Of a stretch of 64,000 nucleotides of DNA, positions 258-21,084 are shown in pieces (within the stretch, counting starts at the first letter, position 1; every line of letters starts with the position of its first letter). The notes beneath the pieces are model-generated. The model worked only from the letters and a program-made list of their open reading frames with translations, was not told the DNA's origin and ran no database searches. This DNA comes from Actinomyces weissii (GTDB lineage: Bacteria; Actinomycetota; Actinomycetes; Actinomycetales; Actinomycetaceae): positions 1,240,001 through 1,304,000 of the forward strand of contig NZ_CP066802.1 of NCBI RefSeq assembly GCF_016598775.1, given 5' to 3'. Both the position numbers and the translations under genes were made by a program.

Positions 258-307
258 CCCGCCGGGCCCGGTACCCCCTCCTGTGCGGGGAGTGCCGGGC
301 CCGGCGG
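258..307 (+). terminator. GC-rich hairpin terminator after the partial gene
   Basis: CCGCCGGGCCCG (258-269) pairs with CGGGCCCGGCGG (296-307), and the stem continues inward through CCCC/GGGG with a small bulge. It begins about 17 bases past the stop codon. There is no T-tract, as is usual for actinobacterial terminators. Confidence 0.65.
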
Positions 308-655
308 CGTCTTTGGCCAGGAGGGCGGGGCCCTGCGACCAGTCTCGGTGGTCCAGGACCAGGAAGATGAGGGCTGCGGGGGGGGGAGAGAGAGAGAGAC
401 GAGCGCGCCTACGCCGTCGGCAGGCCGGGCCGTGGCAGCTAGTTCGGGTGCTGGTTGGGGGTGTAGAGGGTGTCATCTGGGTGAGATGGCGTGTGGCCGG
501 GGTGTGGGGTGACTTGGGCGCGGTGGTGTGTGCTTGTGAGAGGTGCCTGGAGCATGGCCGTGAGCCGGTGAGGGTGCGGGGCGCGTCGTAGGCGTGGTGG
601 GCCTGTTGGTGGTGCACGTGGATCTCACGGTAGGCGGTGTGCCTACCACCCCCCG
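308..655. other. Non-coding stretch with a G/GA-rich tract
   Basis: I see no credible gene. Open frames here have no ribosome site, no family resemblance and unnatural composition. A run of eight G followed by alternating GA (about 379-400) is a simple-sequence tract. The stretch leads into the inverted repeat at 656-718. Confidence 0.5.
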
Positions 656-718
656 ACTTGTGCATTTCGGCGCGAGTGGTGCGGTTTTCCGGCACCACTC
701 GCGCCGAAATGCACAAGT
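656..718. repeat. 27-bp perfect inverted repeat with 9-base loop
   Basis: The arm at 656-682 (starting ACTTGTGCATTTCGGCG) is the exact reverse complement of 692-718, separated by GGTTTTCCG. A 27-bp perfect stem in an otherwise gene-free region is stronger than a normal terminator and less GC-rich than its surroundings. It could be a dispersed palindromic repeat, a miniature element or a very stable terminator. No second copy was noticed in the window. Confidence 0.85.
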
Positions 719-830
719 GGAGGCGAGGGAGGTCCAGGTGGCTACGGCGACGGCAACGGTGTCGCCGGTCCGGGCCTGCCTGCCACACCTTCTGGTCCCG
801 CAGTCCTGGGTGGGGGCGGACCTAGGGCGC

Positions 831-836
831 TAGGGT
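831..836 (+). promoter_or_regulatory. -10 box of a leaderless promoter for the HAD gene
   Basis: TAGGGT ends six bases before the ATG at 843 and no Shine-Dalgarno sequence lies between them, so transcription should start at or next to the start codon. Confidence 0.6.
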
Positions 837-842
837 CGGCCC

Positions 843-1520
843 ATGAGCAGTGCCAGTACCCACCCCGGTCAGCCGGTCCAGGCCGTCGTCTTCGACTACG
901 GCAACGTCATGATCACCTGGGACCCCGTAGGTGCCGTATCCGGCCGGGTGCCCCTGGAGGAGTGGGACGCCTTTGCCCAGGGGGCGGGCTTCCACGAGCT
1001 GAACCTGCGCTCTGACGCCGGGGAGGACTTTGAGACGATCGTGGCGGACCTGGCCGCCGCCCACCCCGAGCACCCGCAGTGGCCCGGGATACTGCGGACC
1101 TACCGGGCGAACTTCCCGCACTCGATCACCGGTCACGTGCCCGGCACGCTCGCCCTGGTCCGCGAGCTGCTGGAGGCCGGGGTGCCCCTGTACCTGCTGT
1201 CCAACTTCGACGTCGAGCCCTTCGAGTACGCCCGCAGGCTCGTGCCCGAGCTGGACCGCTTCCAGGGGCTGGTGGTCTCTGGCCGGGAGCACATGGTCAA
1301 GCCCGACCACCGCCTCTACCGGATCGCCCTGGAGCGCTACCACCTGGACCCCGCCACCACCTTGTTCATTGACGACTCGCCCCAGAACGTGGAGGCCGCC
1401 CGGGCCGTGGGTATGCAGGCACTGCAGTTCACGGGGGCAGGCAGGCTGCGGGCCGAGCTGACCGAGCTGGGCCTGCTGACGGGACCGGCCCAGCAGCCCC
1501 CGATCACGCCCGTAGACTGA
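843..1520 (+). CDS. HAD-superfamily phosphatase (YihX-like, subfamily IA)
   Basis: This is a 225-residue cytoplasmic hydrolase. HAD motif I is present as FDYGNV with the nucleophile at Asp18. The second motif-I acidic residue is replaced by Gly20, as in the YihX type (DLGNV). Motif II is the Ser in LLSNFD, motif III is Lys153 in VKPDHRLY, and motif IV is IDDSPQN at Asp177/Asp178. YihX-type enzymes dephosphorylate sugar phosphates such as glucose-1-phosphate, but the substrate cannot be read from sequence. The ATG is chosen because TAGGGT sits six bases upstream, a leaderless arrangement. The gene ends four bases before fmt, whose own -10 box lies inside this gene's 3' end. Confidence 0.85.
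   Translation: MSSASTHPGQPVQAVVFDYGNVMITWDPVGAVSGRVPLEEWDAFAQGAGFHELNLRSDAGEDFETIVADLAAAHPEHPQWPGILRTYRANFPHSITGHVPGTLALVRELLEAGVPLYLLSNFDVEPFEYARRLVPELDRFQGLVVSGREHMVKPDHRLYRIALERYHLDPATTLFIDDSPQNVEAARAVGMQALQFTGAGRLRAELTELGLLTGPAQQPPITPVD
1513..1518 (+). promoter_or_regulatory. -10 box of a leaderless promoter for fmt, inside the HAD gene
   Basis: TAGACT ends six bases before the fmt ATG. It overlaps the last codons of the upstream gene, so fmt may be expressed alone as well as by read-through. Confidence 0.55.
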
Positions 1521-1524
1521 GCCC

Positions 1525-2487
1525 ATGCGAGTCCTTTTCGCCGGAACACCCGAGGTCGCTCTGCCCGTCCTGCAAGCCCTCATGCAGGAGCAGTCCCATG
1601 AGGTCGTCGGTGTGCTTACCCGGGCTGACGCCCGCCGTGGGCGCGGGCACAGCCTCCAGCCCTCACCGGTGGCTGCCGTGGCCCGGGAGGCCGGGCTGGA
1701 GGTGCGCACCCCCAGGACATTGCGGGACCCGGAGGTCCAGGAATGGGTGCGCTCCCTGGACGCGGACGTGGCCGTCGTCGTGGCCTACGGGCGGCTGGTG
1801 CCCCCGGAGCTGCTGGACGTGCCCCGCCACGGCTGGCTCAACCTCCACTTCTCCCTGCTGCCCGCCTGGCGGGGGGCCGCCCCGGTGCAGTGGGCGGTGA
1901 TCAACGGGGACCAGGTCACTGGAGCCTGCGTGTTCCGCCTGGAGGCGGGACTGGACACCGGCCCCGTCTACGCCCGCCTGAGCCGTCCCATCGGCGCCCG
2001 GCAGACCGCCGGGGAGCTGCTGGCAGAGCTCTCCCAGGAGGGCGTGCAGCTGGTCACCAGCACCTTGAGCGCCCTGGAGACCGGGCAGGCAGCCCCCCAG
2101 GAGCAGGACCACTCCCAGGCCACCACCGCCCCGACCCTCTCCAGCCAGGACGGTGAGATCCGCTGGAGCGACCCGGCCGTGGCCATTGACCGGCGCATCC
2201 GGGGGGTCACCCCCGCCCCCGGGGCCCACACCACCTACGCCGCCACCCGCCTGCGCCTGGGGCCGGTGACCCTGGCGCCTGAGACCACGGACCTGACGCC
2301 CGGCCAGGTGCGCGCCACCAAGCGGGAGGTACTGGTGGGCACCGGCTCCCACGCCGTGCGCCTGGGGCGGGTGGCGCCCGCAGGCAAGCAGTGGATGGAC
2401 GCCGCCGCCTGGGCCCGCGGCGCCCAGGGCCTCTCCGCCACCGTGCTAGGTACCACAGGCAGCAGCCACGACGGCGGGGCCGCCTGA
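1525..2487 (+). CDS. fmt: Methionyl-tRNA formyltransferase
   Basis: This 320-residue enzyme transfers a formyl group from 10-formyltetrahydrofolate to initiator Met-tRNA. The N-terminus (RVLFAGTPEVALPVL) is the Rossmann-like formyltransferase fold. The signature LHFSLLPAWRGAAPVQW contains Asn106 and His108, and Asp144 lies in LDTGPVY; these match the E. coli catalytic triad numbering exactly. The C-terminal third is the OB-like tRNA-binding domain. The stop codon overlaps the rsmB start (TGATG), so the two are translationally coupled. There is no peptide deformylase gene in the window. Confidence 0.96.
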   Translation: MRVLFAGTPEVALPVLQALMQEQSHEVVGVLTRADARRGRGHSLQPSPVAAVAREAGLEVRTPRTLRDPEVQEWVRSLDADVAVVVAYGRLVPPELLDVPRHGWLNLHFSLLPAWRGAAPVQWAVINGDQVTGACVFRLEAGLDTGPVYARLSRPIGARQTAGELLAELSQEGVQLVTSTLSALETGQAAPQEQDHSQATTAPTLSSQDGEIRWSDPAVAIDRRIRGVTPAPGAHTTYAATRLRLGPVTLAPETTDLTPGQVRATKREVLVGTGSHAVRLGRVAPAGKQWMDAAAWARGAQGLSATVLGTTGSSHDGGAA

Positions 2488-4112
2488 TGGCCGCCGCAGC
2501 CGGGCGAGGCGGAGGCCACCACGCAGGCCGGGGCGGGGGACGCCCCCACGGGAACAGCCCCAAAGCCAAAGGCAACCGTGGTGGGAGCGAGCCACGTCGT
2601 CGTCCCCAGGGGGACCAGGCGGGGGCCCAGCGTCGCGGCCAGGGGCGGGAGAAGGGCGCGCACGGCTCCGGTGGCCGCCAGCGCCCGGCCCGCTCCGGCC
2701 CCGGCCCGCGCTTCACCGACCAGGCCCGCCTGTGCGCCTACGAGGCCGTCACCGCGGTGCGGGAGGACGGCGCCTACGCCAACCTGGCACTGCCCCCGCT
2801 GGTGGAGGCCCACCGGCTGGACCAGCGTGACGCCGCCTTCGCCACCGCCCTGACTTACGGCACCCTGCGCCTGCAGGGCCGCTACGACGCGGTTATCGCC
2901 CAGTGCGTGGACCGGCCCCTGCAACAGGTGGACCCCCGGGTCCTGGACCTGCTGCGCCTGGGCACCCACCAGCTGCTGTCCATGCGGGTGCCCAGCCACG
3001 CCGCCGTCAGCGCCACAGTGGACCTGAGCAGGCTGGTGGTGGGCAGAGGCGCGGCCACCTTTGTCAACGCGGTCCTGCGGCGTGTGAGCCAGCAGGACGC
3101 CCAGGTCTGGCTGGACCGGCTGGGACAGGAGGACGACCCTCTCAGTGCCCTAGCCACCCGTGGTTCCCACCCGCTGTGGGTGGTGCAGGCCCTGCGCCAG
3201 GCCCTGATCGACAACGGCCGCGACCCGGCAGAGCTGGAGGCCCTGCTGGAGGCGGACAACGCTGAGCCCCAGGTCACACTCTGCGCCCGTCCCGGCCTGG
3301 TCACGCCGCAGGCCCTGGCCAAGGAGGTCCTCAGGACCACTGGTCTGCGGCCCCGGGCCGGGGACCTGAGCCCCTACGCCCTGGTGCTGGAAGGCGGGGA
3401 CCCGGGCCGGATCGCCTCCGTGCGGCGGTCGCGAGCCGGGGTGGAGGACGAGGGCAGCCAGCTGGTGGCCCTGCTCCTGTCCGAGACCCCCCTGCAGGGC
3501 CGTGACGAGCGCTGGCTGGACATGTGTGCCGGCCCAGGCGGCAAGGCCGCCCTGCTGGGGGCGCGCGCGGAGCAGCGCGGCGCGCACCTGGTGGCCAGTG
3601 AGGTCGCCCCGCACCGGGCTGACCTGGTGGACGACTCCGTACGGGCCCTGTCAGAGCAGGCCGTGGAGGTGCGCTGCGCGGACGGCCGCAGCTACGGTAC
3701 CCAGGAGCCCGGCGCCTACGACCGGGTGCTGGTGGACGCCCCTTGCTCGGGGCTGGGCTCGCTCAGGCGGCGCCCCGAGTCCCGCTGGCGGCGCAGCCCC
3801 CAGGACGTCGTCGAGCTGGCCGGGCTGCAGCGCGAGCTGCTGGTCTCCGCCCTCAAGGCCGTGCGCAAGGGTGGCCTGGTGGCCTACGTGACCTGCTCGC
3901 CCCACGTGCTGGAGACCCGCCTGGTGGTGGAGGACGTGACCCGCGCCCTGGAGCGGGAGGGCCTGGGGACCGAGCTGCTGCACGCCGGGGACGCCGCCAC
4001 CCGCGTGGCCCCCCGCCCCCCGGCCGGGGCCGACCGCCAGCTGCTGCAGCTGTGGCCCCACCTGGACGGCACCGACGCCATGTTCTGCGCACTGCTGCGC
4101 CGTACCCGCTGA
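2487..4112 (+). CDS. rsmB: 16S rRNA (cytosine-967-C5)-methyltransferase RsmB (Sun/NOL1 family)
   Basis: The 541-residue product methylates C967 of 16S rRNA using SAM. The first 60-70 residues are a low-complexity Gly/Arg-rich basic extension. A NusB-like RNA-binding domain follows ([26 protein letters not shown] onward in outline), then the Rossmann methyltransferase domain. Visible motifs are MCAGPGGK at 346-353 (SAM binding), DAPCSG with Cys420 (release) and VTCSPH with Cys470 (nucleophile). The ATG at 2487 is preferred over an upstream in-frame ATG because it overlaps the fmt stop codon. fmt-rsmB adjacency is common in bacteria. Confidence 0.94.
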
Positions 4113-4180
4113 GGGGTGCCTGCCTGCTCCCCAGACCCGCTAAGGACTCCGCCACCGCAACCGCCACCGTCAGGAGCACC

Positions 4181-4849
4181 ATGAGCCACCCAGCCAGCAT
4201 CACCCCCTCCATCCTCAACTGCGACGTCGCCCACCTGGCCACCGAGCTGGAGCGGATCGCCAACGCCGACGGCGTGCACGTGGACGTGATGGACAACCAC
4301 TTCGTGCCCAACCTGTCCTGGGGCCTGCCGGTGGCTGAGGCAGTGGTCCGCTCCACCCGCCTGCCGGTGGACGCCCACCTGATGATCGAGGCCGCCGACC
4401 GCTGGGCCCCCGCCTACGCGGAGGCCGGCTGCCAGGTGGTCACCCCGCACGTGGAGGCTACCCAGGCCCCGGTGCGCCTGGCGCGCGAGCTCCACCGGCT
4501 CGGGGCCCAGGCGGGCCTGGCGCTGCGCCCCGCCACGCCCCTGGAGGCGGTGGAGTCCGTGCTCGGTGAGCTTGACCTGCTGCTCGTAATGACCGTGGAG
4601 CCGGGATTCGGCGGCCAGCAGTTCATTGAGGCGATGCTGCCCAAGATCAAGCGGGCTCGTAATCTCATCAGCGAGCAGAACCTGTCGGTGCGGCTACAGG
4701 TCGACGGCGGCGTGTCCCGCCAGACCATTGAGCGGGCCGCCGAGGCCGGGGCAGACACCTTCGTGGCCGGCTCTGCCGTCTACCGCGCTGACGACGCCCT
4801 GGCCGAGGTCCAGGCCCTGCGTGAGCTGGCCTCCGCCCACCAGCACTGA
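4181..4849 (+). CDS. rpe: Ribulose-phosphate 3-epimerase
   Basis: This 222-residue TIM-barrel enzyme interconverts ribulose-5-phosphate and xylulose-5-phosphate in the pentose phosphate pathway. Metal and catalytic acids are visible as Asp35 in [12 protein letters not shown] and Asp175 in LQVDGGVS, and the phosphate-binding [10 protein letters not shown] loop is intact. The start follows an AGGAG four bases upstream, a rather short spacing. The gene follows rsmB by 68 bases and probably belongs to the same transcript. Confidence 0.95.
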
Positions 4850-4867
4850 GCCCCAGATCGCTACCCG

Positions 4868-4912
4868 CCTCCGGACTGCTGACAGCACAGCCGTCAGGCC
4901 CTGTCCCGGAGG
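4868..4912 (+). terminator. Candidate terminator after rpe
   Basis: CCTCCGG (4868-4874) pairs with CCGGAGG (4906-4912). An inner CTGAC/GTCAG pair gives a two-part stem soon after the rpe stop codon. It is moderate in strength and has no T-tract. Confidence 0.45.
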
Positions 4913-5300
4913 GAATCACCCGGCCCAGGTCCCGCCCAGTTTGTATGACATCCACAAATTGGGTGGGGTTGACTTTCTTGATGCTCCGACTTTGACGGAA
5001 TGGTGCCACTTTCTGCTGCGACAGGTCCCGATTTCAATCAGGTAGCAAGACTTTGTCATGAATTCACAAGCTGTCTCCGGCTACTGCTCCTAATAGCGTG
5101 GTTCTGCAGCCGGCGCCCTGACCATGCTTTGTATGAACACGGGTGCCGCAGGGCAGGCCGGTCTGGGCCGACCTGCCTGGTGAGGCCTTGCGGGGCCACC
5201 GGAACTGGTAGGTGCTCCAGCCAGCGTCTAGTGCATAACCACAACACGGACTGCTGGTGTGAGAACAGACAGGGACGGTTCCCGCCCCCCATCTGACCTG
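4913..5300. other. Long upstream region of the acyl-CoA carboxylase-FAS cluster
   Basis: About 390 bases without a gene, noticeably AT-richer than the neighbours between roughly 4938 and 5100. The 9-mer TTTGTATGA occurs twice, near 4940 and 5129. Promoter-like words occur (TTGACT at 4969, TAATAG at 5091) but none pair at a convincing spacing. It probably carries the promoter and control sites for the lipid gene cluster. Confidence 0.45.
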
Positions 5301-18378: not shown

Positions 18379-18387
18379 CCGCCCCTT

Positions 18388-18618
18388 ACCGGTCTCGCGG
18401 TACCGATGTCCCGGTCTCGCGAGACCGGGACATATGGCTCGCGAGACCGGCAAGGGTATCCTAAGTAACGGGCGGTGGTTCGAGCCTGCCAGCACCGGCA
18501 GTGCCCCTTCTGACAGTGCCTGGCGCCGCCCGCCGTCGTCTTACGCCGTCAGCCGCCGCCTGTTCCTCCGTCATCCTCACTGGTCTCGCAAGACCGGGAG
18601 CTACCTCGCGAGACCGGT
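18388..18618. repeat. Cluster of five CTCGCGAGACC palindromic motifs between fas and acpS
   Basis: A perfect 28-bp palindrome spans 18406-18433 with core GGTCTCGCGAGACC. Partial or imperfect copies lie at 18388-18400, 18438-18450, 18581-18598 (GGTCTCGCAAGACC) and 18603-18618 (CTCGCGAGACCGG). The last covers the expected -35 region of acpS. A 33-bp part (18418-18450) recurs with three mismatches at 24733-24765. Possible roles are operator array, terminator or dispersed REP-like repeat. Confidence 0.85.
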
Positions 18619-18633
18619 ACGGCAGAAGCAGGG

Positions 18634-18645: not shown

Positions 18646-19194
18646 ATGAGCGAGCCACAGCTGCCACCGGTGCCCCCAGGCCGGGGAGAGCCCCCAACCG
18701 GGGCCGGTCTGGACCTGGTCAGCGTGCCCGCCTTCGCCCACCAGCTCACGATCCCCGGCACGGTGTTCGCGGAGCGGGCCTTCACCCCTCGCGAGCTGCG
18801 TGAGGCGGTGCGTCGCTCGGACGCCACCGGCTCGCTGCAGGCTGAGCACCTGGCGGCCCGCTGGGCGGCCAAGGAGGCCTTCATCAAGGCCTGGTCGCAG
18901 GCCGTCAACCAGGTGGCGGGCGCCGCGGTGGCCCCGCTAATCGACCCAGAGCTGGTGGACTGGCAGCAGATCGAGGTGGTCTCTGACCGCTGGGGCCGTC
19001 CGGGCCTGCACCTCAGCGGCCAGGTGGCGGCGGCGGTGGCAGCCTCCCTGGGCCCTGATGCCGCAGACGGCGCCCGCTGGCTGGTCTCCCTCACGCACGA
19101 CGGCGGCTGGGCCGCCGCGATCGTGCTGGCACCCTGCGGAACCCCAGTGACAGGACGGATCGAGCTCCGTACTGTAGAGGAGTCTTCCGAATGA
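18646..19194 (+). CDS. acpS: Holo-[acyl-carrier-protein] synthase, with a replaced C-terminal tail
   Basis: The 182-residue enzyme transfers 4'-phosphopantetheine from CoA to the carrier serine of FAS I. The magnesium-binding Asp23 (GLDLV) and Glu77 (WAAKEAF) are present, and the end of the fold reads WLVSLTHDGGWAAAIVLAP. After that the protein continues with about 15 residues (CGTPVTGRIELRT...) that are not the family's usual ending. A second copy of the 3' end at 19809-19889 finishes with HRG and a stop, which looks like the original terminus. The stop codon overlaps the next ATG (ATGA). The catalytic core is intact, so activity is expected. Confidence 0.92.
   Translation: MSEPQLPPVPPGRGEPPTGAGLDLVSVPAFAHQLTIPGTVFAERAFTPRELREAVRRSDATGSLQAEHLAARWAAKEAFIKAWSQAVNQVAGAAVAPLIDPELVDWQQIEVVSDRWGRPGLHLSGQVAAAVAASLGPDAADGARWLVSLTHDGGWAAAIVLAPCGTPVTGRIELRTVEESSE
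19066..19134 (+). repeat. Left copy of the 69-bp direct repeat (within acpS)
   Basis: Bases 19066-19134 are identical to 19809-19877, an offset of 743 bases. This copy encodes the end of the AcpS fold in frame. Confidence 0.97.
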
Positions 19195-19877
19195 GTGCCT
19201 TGGTCATATACGTGCATGGCAACGGGGGCAGCCCGGAGGAGGCTATGCACTATCAGTCCTTTTTTACTGGGGACGATGTAATCGGACTGGACTATGAGGC
19301 GAAGGTCCCGTGGCAGGCAAAGACGGAGTTCGCAGACTTTTATGACCGGCATAGGCAGGGGCATGATGCTGTCGTCCTGGTCGCCAGCAGTATCGGTGCT
19401 TACCTTTCCATGCATGCTTTTGCCGATAAACTGATTTCTCAGGCGCTGTTCATCTCTCCGGTTGTGGACATGGAGCGGCTGATAACGGAAGCAATGGCTT
19501 GTTCGGGTGTCACGGAGACTCAGCTGCGCAGGCAGAAAGTTATTAATATAGGATCCGGGCAGTCCCTATCTTGGGAGTATCTCAGCTACGTGCGGACGAA
19601 CCCGGTGCACTGGAATGTCCCCACGTCGATCCTCTACGGCGGGAAGGACCACATCACCTCCAGAGAGACAATGTCCGAGTTCGCGGAGCACATTGGTGCG
19701 CAGCTCACGGTGGCGGAGGACTGCGAGCACTGGTTCCACACCGCGGAGCAGGTGCGAGTTCTTGACAGCTGGGTGAGGTGCGCAATTAGTTAGCTCAGTA
19801 GGGCCATCGACGGCGCCCGCTGGCTGGTCTCCCTCACGCACGACGGCGGCTGGGCCGCCGCGATCGTGCTGGCACCC
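19135..19877. mobile_element. 743-bp insertion in the 3' end of acpS carrying one gene
   Basis: The segment between corresponding ends of the two 69-bp repeats is one repeat unit plus a 674-bp foreign piece (19135-19808). That piece holds a complete alpha/beta hydrolase gene with visibly lower GC than acpS or dhaK. The left junction keeps acpS open with a new tail and the right junction retains the old acpS terminus. The arrangement resembles integration into a gene's 3' end with a duplicated attachment segment, or recombination with a circle carrying acpS sequence. No integrase or transposase is encoded, so the mechanism is unknown. Confidence 0.7.
19191..19793 (+). CDS. Small alpha/beta hydrolase carried by the acpS insertion
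   Basis: The product has 200 residues and no signal peptide. The N-terminal HGNGG (9-13) forms the oxyanion region. The nucleophile elbow is ASSIG with Ser67, a variant of GxSxG with Ala in first place. The acid is probably Asp153 in GGKDH, and the base is His180 or His183 in CEHWFH. Length and motifs suit an RBBP9/YdeN-type or short esterase-like hydrolase; the substrate is unknown. Its ATG overlaps the acpS stop codon, so translation is coupled to acpS. The first two thirds use codons such as TTT, TAT, ATA and AAA that neighbours avoid, pointing to horizontal transfer. Confidence 0.85.
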   Translation: MSALVIYVHGNGGSPEEAMHYQSFFTGDDVIGLDYEAKVPWQAKTEFADFYDRHRQGHDAVVLVASSIGAYLSMHAFADKLISQALFISPVVDMERLITEAMACSGVTETQLRRQKVINIGSGQSLSWEYLSYVRTNPVHWNVPTSILYGGKDHITSRETMSEFAEHIGAQLTVAEDCEHWFHTAEQVRVLDSWVRCAIS

Positions 19878-19889
19878 CACCGGGGCTGA
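19809..19889 (+). pseudogene. acpS': Displaced original 3' end of acpS
   Basis: The first 69 bases duplicate 19066-19134. Read in the acpS frame, the fragment continues with CCC CAC CGG GGC TGA, giving APHRG and a stop, a normal short end for AcpS. There is no start or ribosome site, so it is not expressed as a protein. It marks the right boundary of the insertion. Confidence 0.85.
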
Positions 19890-20079: not shown

Positions 20080-21084
20080 ATGAAAAAGCTGATTAACGCC
20101 GTTGACGACGTAGTCACGGACTCGCTCAGAGGCATGGCCGCCGCCCACCCGGACACCCTGCAGGTTGATGTGGAGCAGCACATCGTCTACCGGGCCGTCC
20201 CCAAGGAGCCGGGCAAGGTGGCCCTGGTCTCCGGGGGCGGCAGCGGGCACGAGCCCCTGCACGCGGGCTTCGTGGGCACGGGGATGCTGGACGCCGCCTG
20301 CGCGGGCGAGGTCTTCACCTCCCCGGTGCCCGACCAGGTCGCGGCCGCCACCGCCGCCGTGGACCGGGGCGCGGGCGTGCTGCACATCGTCAAGAACTAC
20401 ACCGGCGACGTCATGAACTTTGAGATGGCGGCCGAGCTGGTGGCCGCCGAGAGCGGCACGGAGGTGGCCACCGTGGTGACCGCCGACGACGTCGCCGTGG
20501 AGGACTCCCTGTACACCGCCGGACGGCGCGGCGTGGGGGTGACGGTGCTGGTGGAGAAGATCGCCGGGGCGGCCGCAGAGGCGGGCCTGAGCCTGGCCCA
20601 GGTGGCGGAGGTCGCCCAGCGGGTGAGCAGCAACGGCCGCTCTATGGGCATGGCCCTGACCTCCTGCACCGTGCCCGCCAACGGCAGGCCCTCCTTCGAC
20701 CTGCCGGAGGACGAGATGGAGATCGGCATCGGGATCCACGGTGAGCCGGGCCGCCACCGGGAGAGGCTCCTGCCCGCCCGTGAGATCGCCGAGCGCCTGG
20801 TGGAGCCGGTCCTGGCCGAGCTGCCCGCCGGGGACGGCCACGGCGTGATCGCCTTCCTCAACGGCATGGGCGGCAGCCCCCTGATCGAGCTGTACCTCAT
20901 GTACGCGGAGGTAGCCAGGCTGCTGGAGGCGGCCGGGGTCAAGGTGGAGCGCTCCTTGGTGGGCAACTACATCACCAGCCTGGACATGGCTGGCTGCTCC
21001 CTGACCCTGCTGCGGACCGATGAGCAGGTCCTGCGCCTGTGGGACACCCCGGTACGCACCGCGGCTCTGCGCTGGGGGGTGTGA
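20080..21084 (+). CDS. dhaK: Dihydroxyacetone kinase, substrate-binding subunit DhaK
   Basis: The 334-residue subunit binds dihydroxyacetone covalently and presents it to DhaL. The N-terminal segment [16 protein letters not shown] and the block [17 protein letters not shown] are family hallmarks. His220 in GIGIHGEPG is the hemiaminal-forming residue. dhaK, dhaL and dhaM form an operon with overlapping stop and start codons. The phosphoryl donor is the PTS through DhaM, so DHA phosphorylation draws on phosphoenolpyruvate, not ATP. Confidence 0.96.

What the first reader, a model, noticed from the sequence alone, without database searches (positions are those of the whole stretch)
19066..19889. 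A hydrolase gene inserted in the 3' end of acpS between perfect 69-bp direct repeats
Bases 19066-19134 and 19809-19877 are identical. Between them lies a complete, AT-richer alpha/beta hydrolase gene, overlapping the acpS stop codon. The first copy keeps acpS functional with a foreign tail; the second ends in what looks like the original acpS stop. This is the layout of an integrating cassette that uses the 3' end of an essential gene as its site, yet no integrase is present. Coupling cargo translation to an essential gene would secure expression. It could be a family of single-gene cassettes at acpS.
Basis: partly seen in the sequence, partly recalled or inferred. Interest (0 to 1): 0.8.

Follow-up and report, generated by a model that had tools for sequence, protein, structure and literature searches.

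The report
Foreign gene inserted with target duplication
A single foreign enzyme gene, of a kind common in gut Clostridia, was recently inserted into the tail of an essential bacterial gene and left a 69-base stretch of that tail copied on both sides; the event is real, but it looks like an example of an already described type of gene insertion and not like a new mobile cassette.

Summary
Two identical 69-bp copies of the acpS 3' end (19066-19134, 19809-19877) flank 674 bp that hold one intact alpha/beta-hydrolase gene (19191-19793; 56% GC). The nearest genome held (G009) has the empty site: one copy, the acpS stop, then dhaK. Of 29 other acpS loci examined in the genus, none has a second copy; dhaK follows acpS within 49-151 bp in 8. 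The hydrolase falls among chiefly clostridial sequences (98/96), and none of the 48 other genus genomes held has a close one. So this is a recent one-gene horizontal insertion with a 69-bp target duplication. A family of integrating cassettes at acpS is not supported: no integrase in the insert, no other cargo found, and only 1 of 31 listed indels against G009 shows a long duplication. The pattern matches "insertion with long target duplication", described for Helicobacter pylori restriction-modification genes. Integrase-free recombination (circle plus single crossover, or template switching) is my preferred, inferred, mechanism. A second locus in the genome (Schlafen/AlbA_2 gene between 256-bp repeats, one copy and no insert in G009) has the same layout.

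The parts
18646..19194 (+). acpS (holo-ACP synthase), 182 aa; its frame continues 19 codons into the insert before its stop
   Evidence: Pfam ACPS 49.3 bits over cut-off 25; NF000831 123.8 bits, just under its cut-off of 124
19066..19134 (+). direct repeat copy 1 = coding 3' part of acpS
   Evidence: 67 of 69 identical to the single copy of G009
19135..19808 (+). 674-bp unique insert absent from the orthologous place in G009
19135..19191 (+). codons for the foreign acpS tail CGTPVTGRIELRTVEESSE (stop 19192-19194)
   Evidence: best tblastn match of the tail in 88 homologue loci is E 0.70
19176..19182 (+). AGAGGAG, ribosome-binding-like motif before the hydrolase start
   Evidence: read; function inferred
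19191..19793 (+). alpha/beta hydrolase gene, 200 aa, esterase-like fold; candidate triad S67, D153, H180
   Evidence: the three residues are invariant in 35 aligned sequences; model pLDDT 95.7 matches esterases and lipases of known structure; triad assignment recalled from knowledge of the fold
19809..19877 (+). direct repeat copy 2 = original acpS 3' end, no longer part of the acpS frame
   Evidence: contiguous with sequence homologous to G009 downstream of acpS
19878..19889 (+). original last codons and stop of acpS (HRG-stop)
   Evidence: HWD-stop in G009
20080..21084 (+). dhaK, downstream neighbour that marks the far side of the empty site
   Evidence: the name is recalled from its sequence and the finding, no family search was run on it

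Best explanation
[quoted passage not shown] Shown: foreign affinity, insertion relative to G009, exact duplication, open acpS and hydrolase frames, no recombinase gene in the insert. Inferred: the joining step. The likeliest routes are (a) a fragment with a short acpS end joined to the foreign gene, circularised and integrated by one crossover in the 69 bp, or (b) template switching at a broken fork that copied the foreign piece and restarted 69 bp upstream. Also inferred: the hydrolase, a small serine esterase, is expressed from the acpS transcript by coupling (ATGA), and recombination between the repeats can remove the gene cleanly and restore acpS.
For: Exact pair and insert. Empty site in G009; the two matches overlap by about 76 bp on G009 across a 667-bp gap here. 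acpS-dhaK spacing 49-151 bp in 8 of 29 other loci, 885 bp here. Hydrolase: 1 of 396 phylum genomes, its own; best 80 loci of a species-genome scan 48-61% identical, chiefly Bacillota and Fibrobacterota by title, none titled as an actinobacterium (capped list); an 11-row set at 98/96 in the tree. Recent: 17 of 4258 aligned 69-column windows are perfect between G000 and G009, median 13 differences. Precedent: in E. coli 56 of 60 clones had a duplication, 14 sequenced gave 109-950 bp, read by the authors as a single crossover of a circle (PMC3240628, passages). Ku: 0 matches in this genome (control rang in 1 of 14), so Ku end joining is unlikely. ComEC: present, but 10 of 14 controls including E. 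coli have it, so it says little.
Against: The donor is unknown (best 61% protein identity), so junction microhomology cannot be read and (a) and (b) cannot be told apart. Route (a) needs a molecule in which acpS was already joined to the hydrolase; none was found. Long duplications are rare: 1 of 31 listed indels. One homologue (41% identity) lies on a mobilizable Lactiplantibacillus plasmid with a MobQ relaxase and a site-specific integrase about 3.5 kb away, and two viral-collection contigs carry 47% homologues whose surroundings I did not study, so mobile carriage of this family does occur. Only one strain of the species was available.
Confidence: 0.67

Rival explanations
1. A non-autonomous cassette moved by a site-specific integrase acting in trans, with the 69 bp as att core in the acpS 3' end.
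For: Use of a conserved gene's 3' end with the core duplicated and the gene kept open is the usual layout of integrative elements (recalled). Homologues occur on a plasmid with an integrase and in two viral-collection contigs.
Against: No integrase in the 674 bp; no second copy in 29 other acpS loci; a 23-base core of the repeat has 0 exact matches in viral contigs; DNA matches in plasmids cover at most 24% of the locus and the only phage match is 16% at E 0.07, inside a phage integrase gene and probably chance. Integrases of the own genome were not searched.
Confidence: 0.11
2. A larger integrated plasmid or prophage once sat here and internal deletion left one gene and the att repeats.
For: Would explain repeats plus a lone cargo gene; no call supports it directly.
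Against: Outside the hydrolase the insert has only 56 and 15 bp, room for no other gene.
Confidence: 0.08
3. Ancestral state: the gene and repeats are old and relatives lost them by recombination between the repeats.
For: Repeats can delete the gene precisely, so loss is easy (inference).
Against: Needs loss in all 48 other genus genomes held, yet the copies are 69 of 69 identical where G000 and G009 differ by a median of 13 per 69 columns, unless gene conversion kept them equal; affinities are clostridial.
Confidence: 0.05
4. Transposition by an element of the IS1634/IS1549 kind, which makes long variable direct repeats.
For: Those two elements are reported with direct repeats of 8-514 bp (PMC2266710, passages).
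Against: No transposase in the insert, and no inverted repeat of 14 nt or more pairing its two ends.
Confidence: 0.04
5. Assembly artefact.
For: Single genome, reads not available.
Against: Single-contig genome, open coupled frames, coherent empty site in G009.
Confidence: 0.03

Closest known systems
Insertion with long target duplication (Nobusato et al. 2000; known to me through passages of citing papers), described for restriction-modification genes in Helicobacter pylori
   Same: Gene inserted relative to a close relative, long target stretch duplicated, low G+C insert (passage)
   Different: Cargo is a hydrolase, not a restriction-modification system; other phylum; the target is the 3' end of acpS
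HpyAII restriction-modification locus with 80-bp flanking repeats (PMC7494987, passage citing Aras et al. 2001)
   Same: Genes between direct repeats of similar length; recombination at the repeats can delete or restore them
   Different: Deletion and restoration not shown here
Single crossover by a circularised fragment (PMC3240628, passages)
   Same: Leaves a direct duplication of a short shared stretch around foreign DNA
   Different: Laboratory plasmid in E. coli; no donor with acpS homology found here
Integrative elements at gene 3' ends (prophages, ICEs, satellites; recalled)
   Same: Target gene 3' end duplicated and gene kept open
   Different: No integrase in the insert and no other member found

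Membership tests
Insertion with long target duplication | Insert present in one genome, absent from the orthologous place in a close relative | tested here: met
   G009 empty site
Insertion with long target duplication | Long target stretch present once in the relative and twice around the insert | tested here: met
   69 of 69 identical here; one copy, 67 of 69, in G009
Insertion with long target duplication | No transposase or integrase carried | tested here: met
   Only the hydrolase ORF has a family match; 56 and 15 bp remain
Insertion with long target duplication | Frequent link to restriction-modification genes | tested here: not met
   Cargo is an alpha/beta hydrolase; the passages call this link frequent, not required
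Integrase-driven cassette or integrative element | Encodes or is linked to a cognate integrase | tested here: not met
   None in the insert; the rest of the genome was not searched for integrases
Integrase-driven cassette or integrative element | Recurrent use of the same site with other cargo | tested here: not met
   0 of 29 other acpS loci with a second copy; 7 genus genomes with acpS hits not fetched, 12 not searched for acpS
Integrase-driven cassette or integrative element | Excised circle with one att copy | not testable with these tools
   needs PCR or reads
Alpha/beta hydrolase fold | Family profile match, fold and Ser-Asp-His triad | tested here: met
   Hydrolase_4 28.9 bits over 27, UPF0227 23.6 over 21; S67, D153, H180 invariant in 35 rows; model pLDDT 95.7, pTM 0.91, best matches lipases and feruloyl esterases, TM up to 0.77 on the query, 11-18% identity in the 50 rows shown. 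No sequence match in the PDB at E 0.001.

The most novel reading that the evidence does not exclude
Integrase-free gene units in this genus: single foreign genes (hydrolase at acpS, Schlafen/AlbA_2 gene beside an aminotransferase gene) bracketed by long copies of the host target, which leave by homologous recombination as circles and re-enter other cells wherever the single-copy target exists, so that ordinary gene 3' ends serve as the 'att site' without any recombinase of their own.
Probability: 0.12. Interest if true: 0.6.

Novelty: new member of a known kind. Interest (0 to 1): 0.33.

Why it matters
It is a recent, datable example of how one gene from a distant phylum can be added to a bacterial chromosome without breaking an essential gene and with no mobile-element gene in the insert, with the sister genome preserving the empty site. 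With a second locus of the same layout in the same genome it gives a small, testable case for a process that, in the passages I saw, is discussed for restriction-modification genes of Helicobacter pylori.

Tried and rejected
Hydrolase as phage or plasmid cargo: 1 phage-collection record (MT839130, 49.7%) and 26 plasmid records, all under 60% identity. Of the six regions opened, the two Selenomonas plasmids and the Treponema plasmid show ordinary small genes around it; the Lactiplantibacillus plasmid is mobilizable, with relaxase and integrase; two have no annotation. Viral contigs: 0 with the protein, 2 with the alignment (surroundings not studied).

The insert's 56-bp and 15-bp ends as pieces of neighbouring donor genes: only 10-12 base matches in 88 homologue loci, and in 464 kb of the own genome nothing but short chance-level matches besides the locus itself.

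Repeats around hydrolase homologues: of 97 other loci, 3 (L064, L067, L107) have an exact pair of 24-26 bp spanning the gene, unlike in sequence and place (many loci have short flanks).

Other own-genome repeat pairs: the 1963-spacing pair is a gene duplication; 1441866/1442424 lies in one repeat-rich gene; two clusters look like CRISPR arrays; 2366090 and 1473754 lie inside single long ORFs; 391056, 1534052, 1667796 and 2224562 (with 2225432) were looked at only and are not resolved, but I saw no clear low-GC single gene wholly between the copies.

Literature: acpS as integration site, search 72, 4 papers, none relevant from the listing. Searches led to the papers cited; 61 and 73 were seen as listings, 73 also pointing to PMC2869330. 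PMC5361080 (passages) proposes one-sided homologous plus illegitimate recombination for Vibrio cholerae effector modules; PMC2614495 showed only a reference entry.

Full report
WHAT IS THERE. The window holds acpS at 18646-19194 and an alpha/beta hydrolase gene at 19191-19793. Bases 19066-19134 and 19809-19877 are identical, 69 of 69, spacing 743. The only other exact direct pair of 24 bp or more within 4 kb in the window is 25 bp long and 30 bp apart. The insert proper is 674 bp (19135-19808). Window GC falls to 0.54 there, against about 0.66-0.79 in the flanks; the gene itself is 56.1% GC.

THE GENES. AcpS keeps the conserved IVL-A-P end and gains the tail CGTPVTGRIELRTVEESSE. Relatives end in short variable tails, except L021 (G019), where the acpS frame has no stop before the locus ends. 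The tail's stop overlaps the hydrolase start (ATGA), with AGAGGAG 8 nt before it; coupling is an inference. The hydrolase matches Hydrolase_4 and UPF0227 over their cut-offs. S67, D153 and H180 are invariant in 35 aligned sequences; calling them a catalytic triad rests on my knowledge of the fold. The predicted structure is confident (pLDDT 95.7, pTM 0.91) and resembles lipases and feruloyl or cinnamoyl esterases of known structure (TM up to 0.77 on the query, 11-18% identity in the rows shown). A small serine esterase is likely; the substrate is unknown. The profile had no PDB sequence match at E 0.001.

THE EMPTY SITE. In the closest genome held (G009; acpS 87% identical by protein) acpS ends HWD-stop and runs on into a sequence homologous to that after copy 2, then dhaK. 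The 69-bp stretch was found there once, 67 of 69 identical. All 36 other genus genomes have an acpS match; 29 of these loci were fetched. None of the 29 has a second copy downstream (best 41 of 69, about chance level in my reading), and dhaK follows acpS within 49-151 bp in 8 of 29. Twelve more genus genomes were not searched for acpS. So acpS-dhaK is the likely older order and this genome has the insertion.

WHERE THE GENE COMES FROM. Hydrolase matches: 11 of 99 nearest genomes counting its own, the best other 36%; 9 of 49 genus genomes counting its own, the others 30-36%; 5 of 213 family genomes at E 1e-30 counting its own, the others 39-45%; 1 of 396 phylum genomes at E 1e-10, its own. In a 95-row tree the window protein sits in an 11-row set at 98/96 with mostly Clostridia, one Lentisphaerota, one unnamed bacterium and one phage-collection record, on a long branch of 0.87 (the bootstrap had not settled). 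Transfer from an unsampled clostridial-type donor is the natural reading. Against a purely chromosomal history: one homologue lies on a mobilizable plasmid with an integrase and two lie in viral-collection contigs.

HOW OLD. G000 and G009 are 79.4% identical over 299,543 aligned columns of the compared stretch; 17 of 4258 windows of 69 columns are perfect, median 13 differences. Two perfect copies therefore mean a duplication much younger than the split, or recent homogenisation.

IS IT A SYSTEM. Comparing 464 kb of this genome with 400 kb of G009, 31 indels were listed (250 bases or more on one side, under 150 on the other); only the acpS one shows a long overlap on the empty side (about 76 bp by BLAST ends), three others 8-16 bp, the other 27 none. 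Scanning 800,000 unique bases of the own genome for exact direct pairs of 24 bp or more, 300-5000 apart, gave one further case of the same layout among those I could read: a Schlafen/AlbA_2 gene (L147 6199-7908) between copies 252 of 256 identical, the right copy covering the 3' end of an aminotransferase gene. A few other pairs remain unresolved, and older, diverged repeats would be missed. G009 has a single copy there. A relative of that gene lies in the same interval in G017 between its own, different, roughly 325-bp repeats, and beside the aminotransferase gene without long repeats in G014. Of 97 other hydrolase homologue loci, 3 have a 24-26 bp exact pair spanning the gene, unlike one another. 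Two loci are a hint, not a family, and nothing ties them to a shared enzyme.

MECHANISM. With no integrase or transposase gene in the insert and no Ku match in the genome (the Ku control rang in 1 of 14, Bacillus subtilis), the routes I rank first are a circularised fragment integrated by one crossover in the 69 bp, or template switching that restarted 69 bp upstream. Single crossovers leaving 109-950 bp duplications were seen in E. coli (PMC3240628, passages). Transformation that bridges sister chromatids can also make duplications (PMC3784515, passages), but those are about 100-900 kb. None of this is shown for acpS. Integrases elsewhere in the genome were not searched, so action in trans stays open.

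WHAT IS KNOWN. The pattern has a name: 'insertion with long target duplication', from Nobusato et al. 2000, which I know only through passages of papers that cite it (PMC1643837, PMC3031569, PMC4978471, PMC2749054). PMC7494987 (passage) describes HpyAII, where 80-bp flanking repeats let recombination delete or restore the genes. PMC2869330 (passages) reports transposed Arabidopsis genes between direct repeats of the target and proposes insertion of circles. The features that I could test are met, apart from the link to restriction-modification genes, which those passages call frequent and not required. I therefore file it as a new member of a known kind. One search for acpS as an integration site found nothing relevant in its listing.

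VERDICT. Observation confirmed; insertion confirmed; cassette family not supported. It is a clean, recent example of a known pattern, with a second locus worth a look.

Noticed in passing
L147 5895-8213 (own genome 2095895-2098213): Schlafen/AlbA_2 gene between 256-bp direct repeats (252 of 256), right copy covering an aminotransferase gene's 3' end; single copy and no insert in G009.
   Followed up: partly
L164 807-3168 (G017): A relative of that AlbA_2 gene in the same gene interval lies between its own roughly 325-bp direct repeats of different sequence, and is read in two overlapping ORFs.
   Followed up: partly
window 18415 (exact motif), near-copies in 18383-18622: TCTCGCGAGA palindrome occurs 13 times in 464 kb of this genome (once in the window) and 0 times in 400 kb of G009; nine other palindromes give 0-3 in this genome. 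Perhaps a lineage-specific dispersed repeat or binding site.
   Followed up: no
L171 11469-13640 (G009): In G009 about 2.2 kb, which seem to hold a membrane protein and a TetR-like regulator (my reading of the ORFs), lie between fas and acpS where the window has about 270 bp.
   Followed up: no
L021 1501-3474 (G019): The acpS frame has no stop and runs on to the end of the locus, ending in what looks like an aldehyde dehydrogenase (my reading): possibly an AcpS fusion.
   Followed up: no
own genome 1377582-1378225 and 1606423-1607540: Two CRISPR-like arrays (repeats of about 28 bp every 61 and about 37 bp every 72) (the label is my reading).
   Followed up: no
L042 (MT839130.1): This 'Bacteriophage sp.' record's hydrolase is almost the same as that of a Faecalibacterium prausnitzii locus (tree branches 0.012 and 0); the record may be bacterial DNA.
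   Followed up: no
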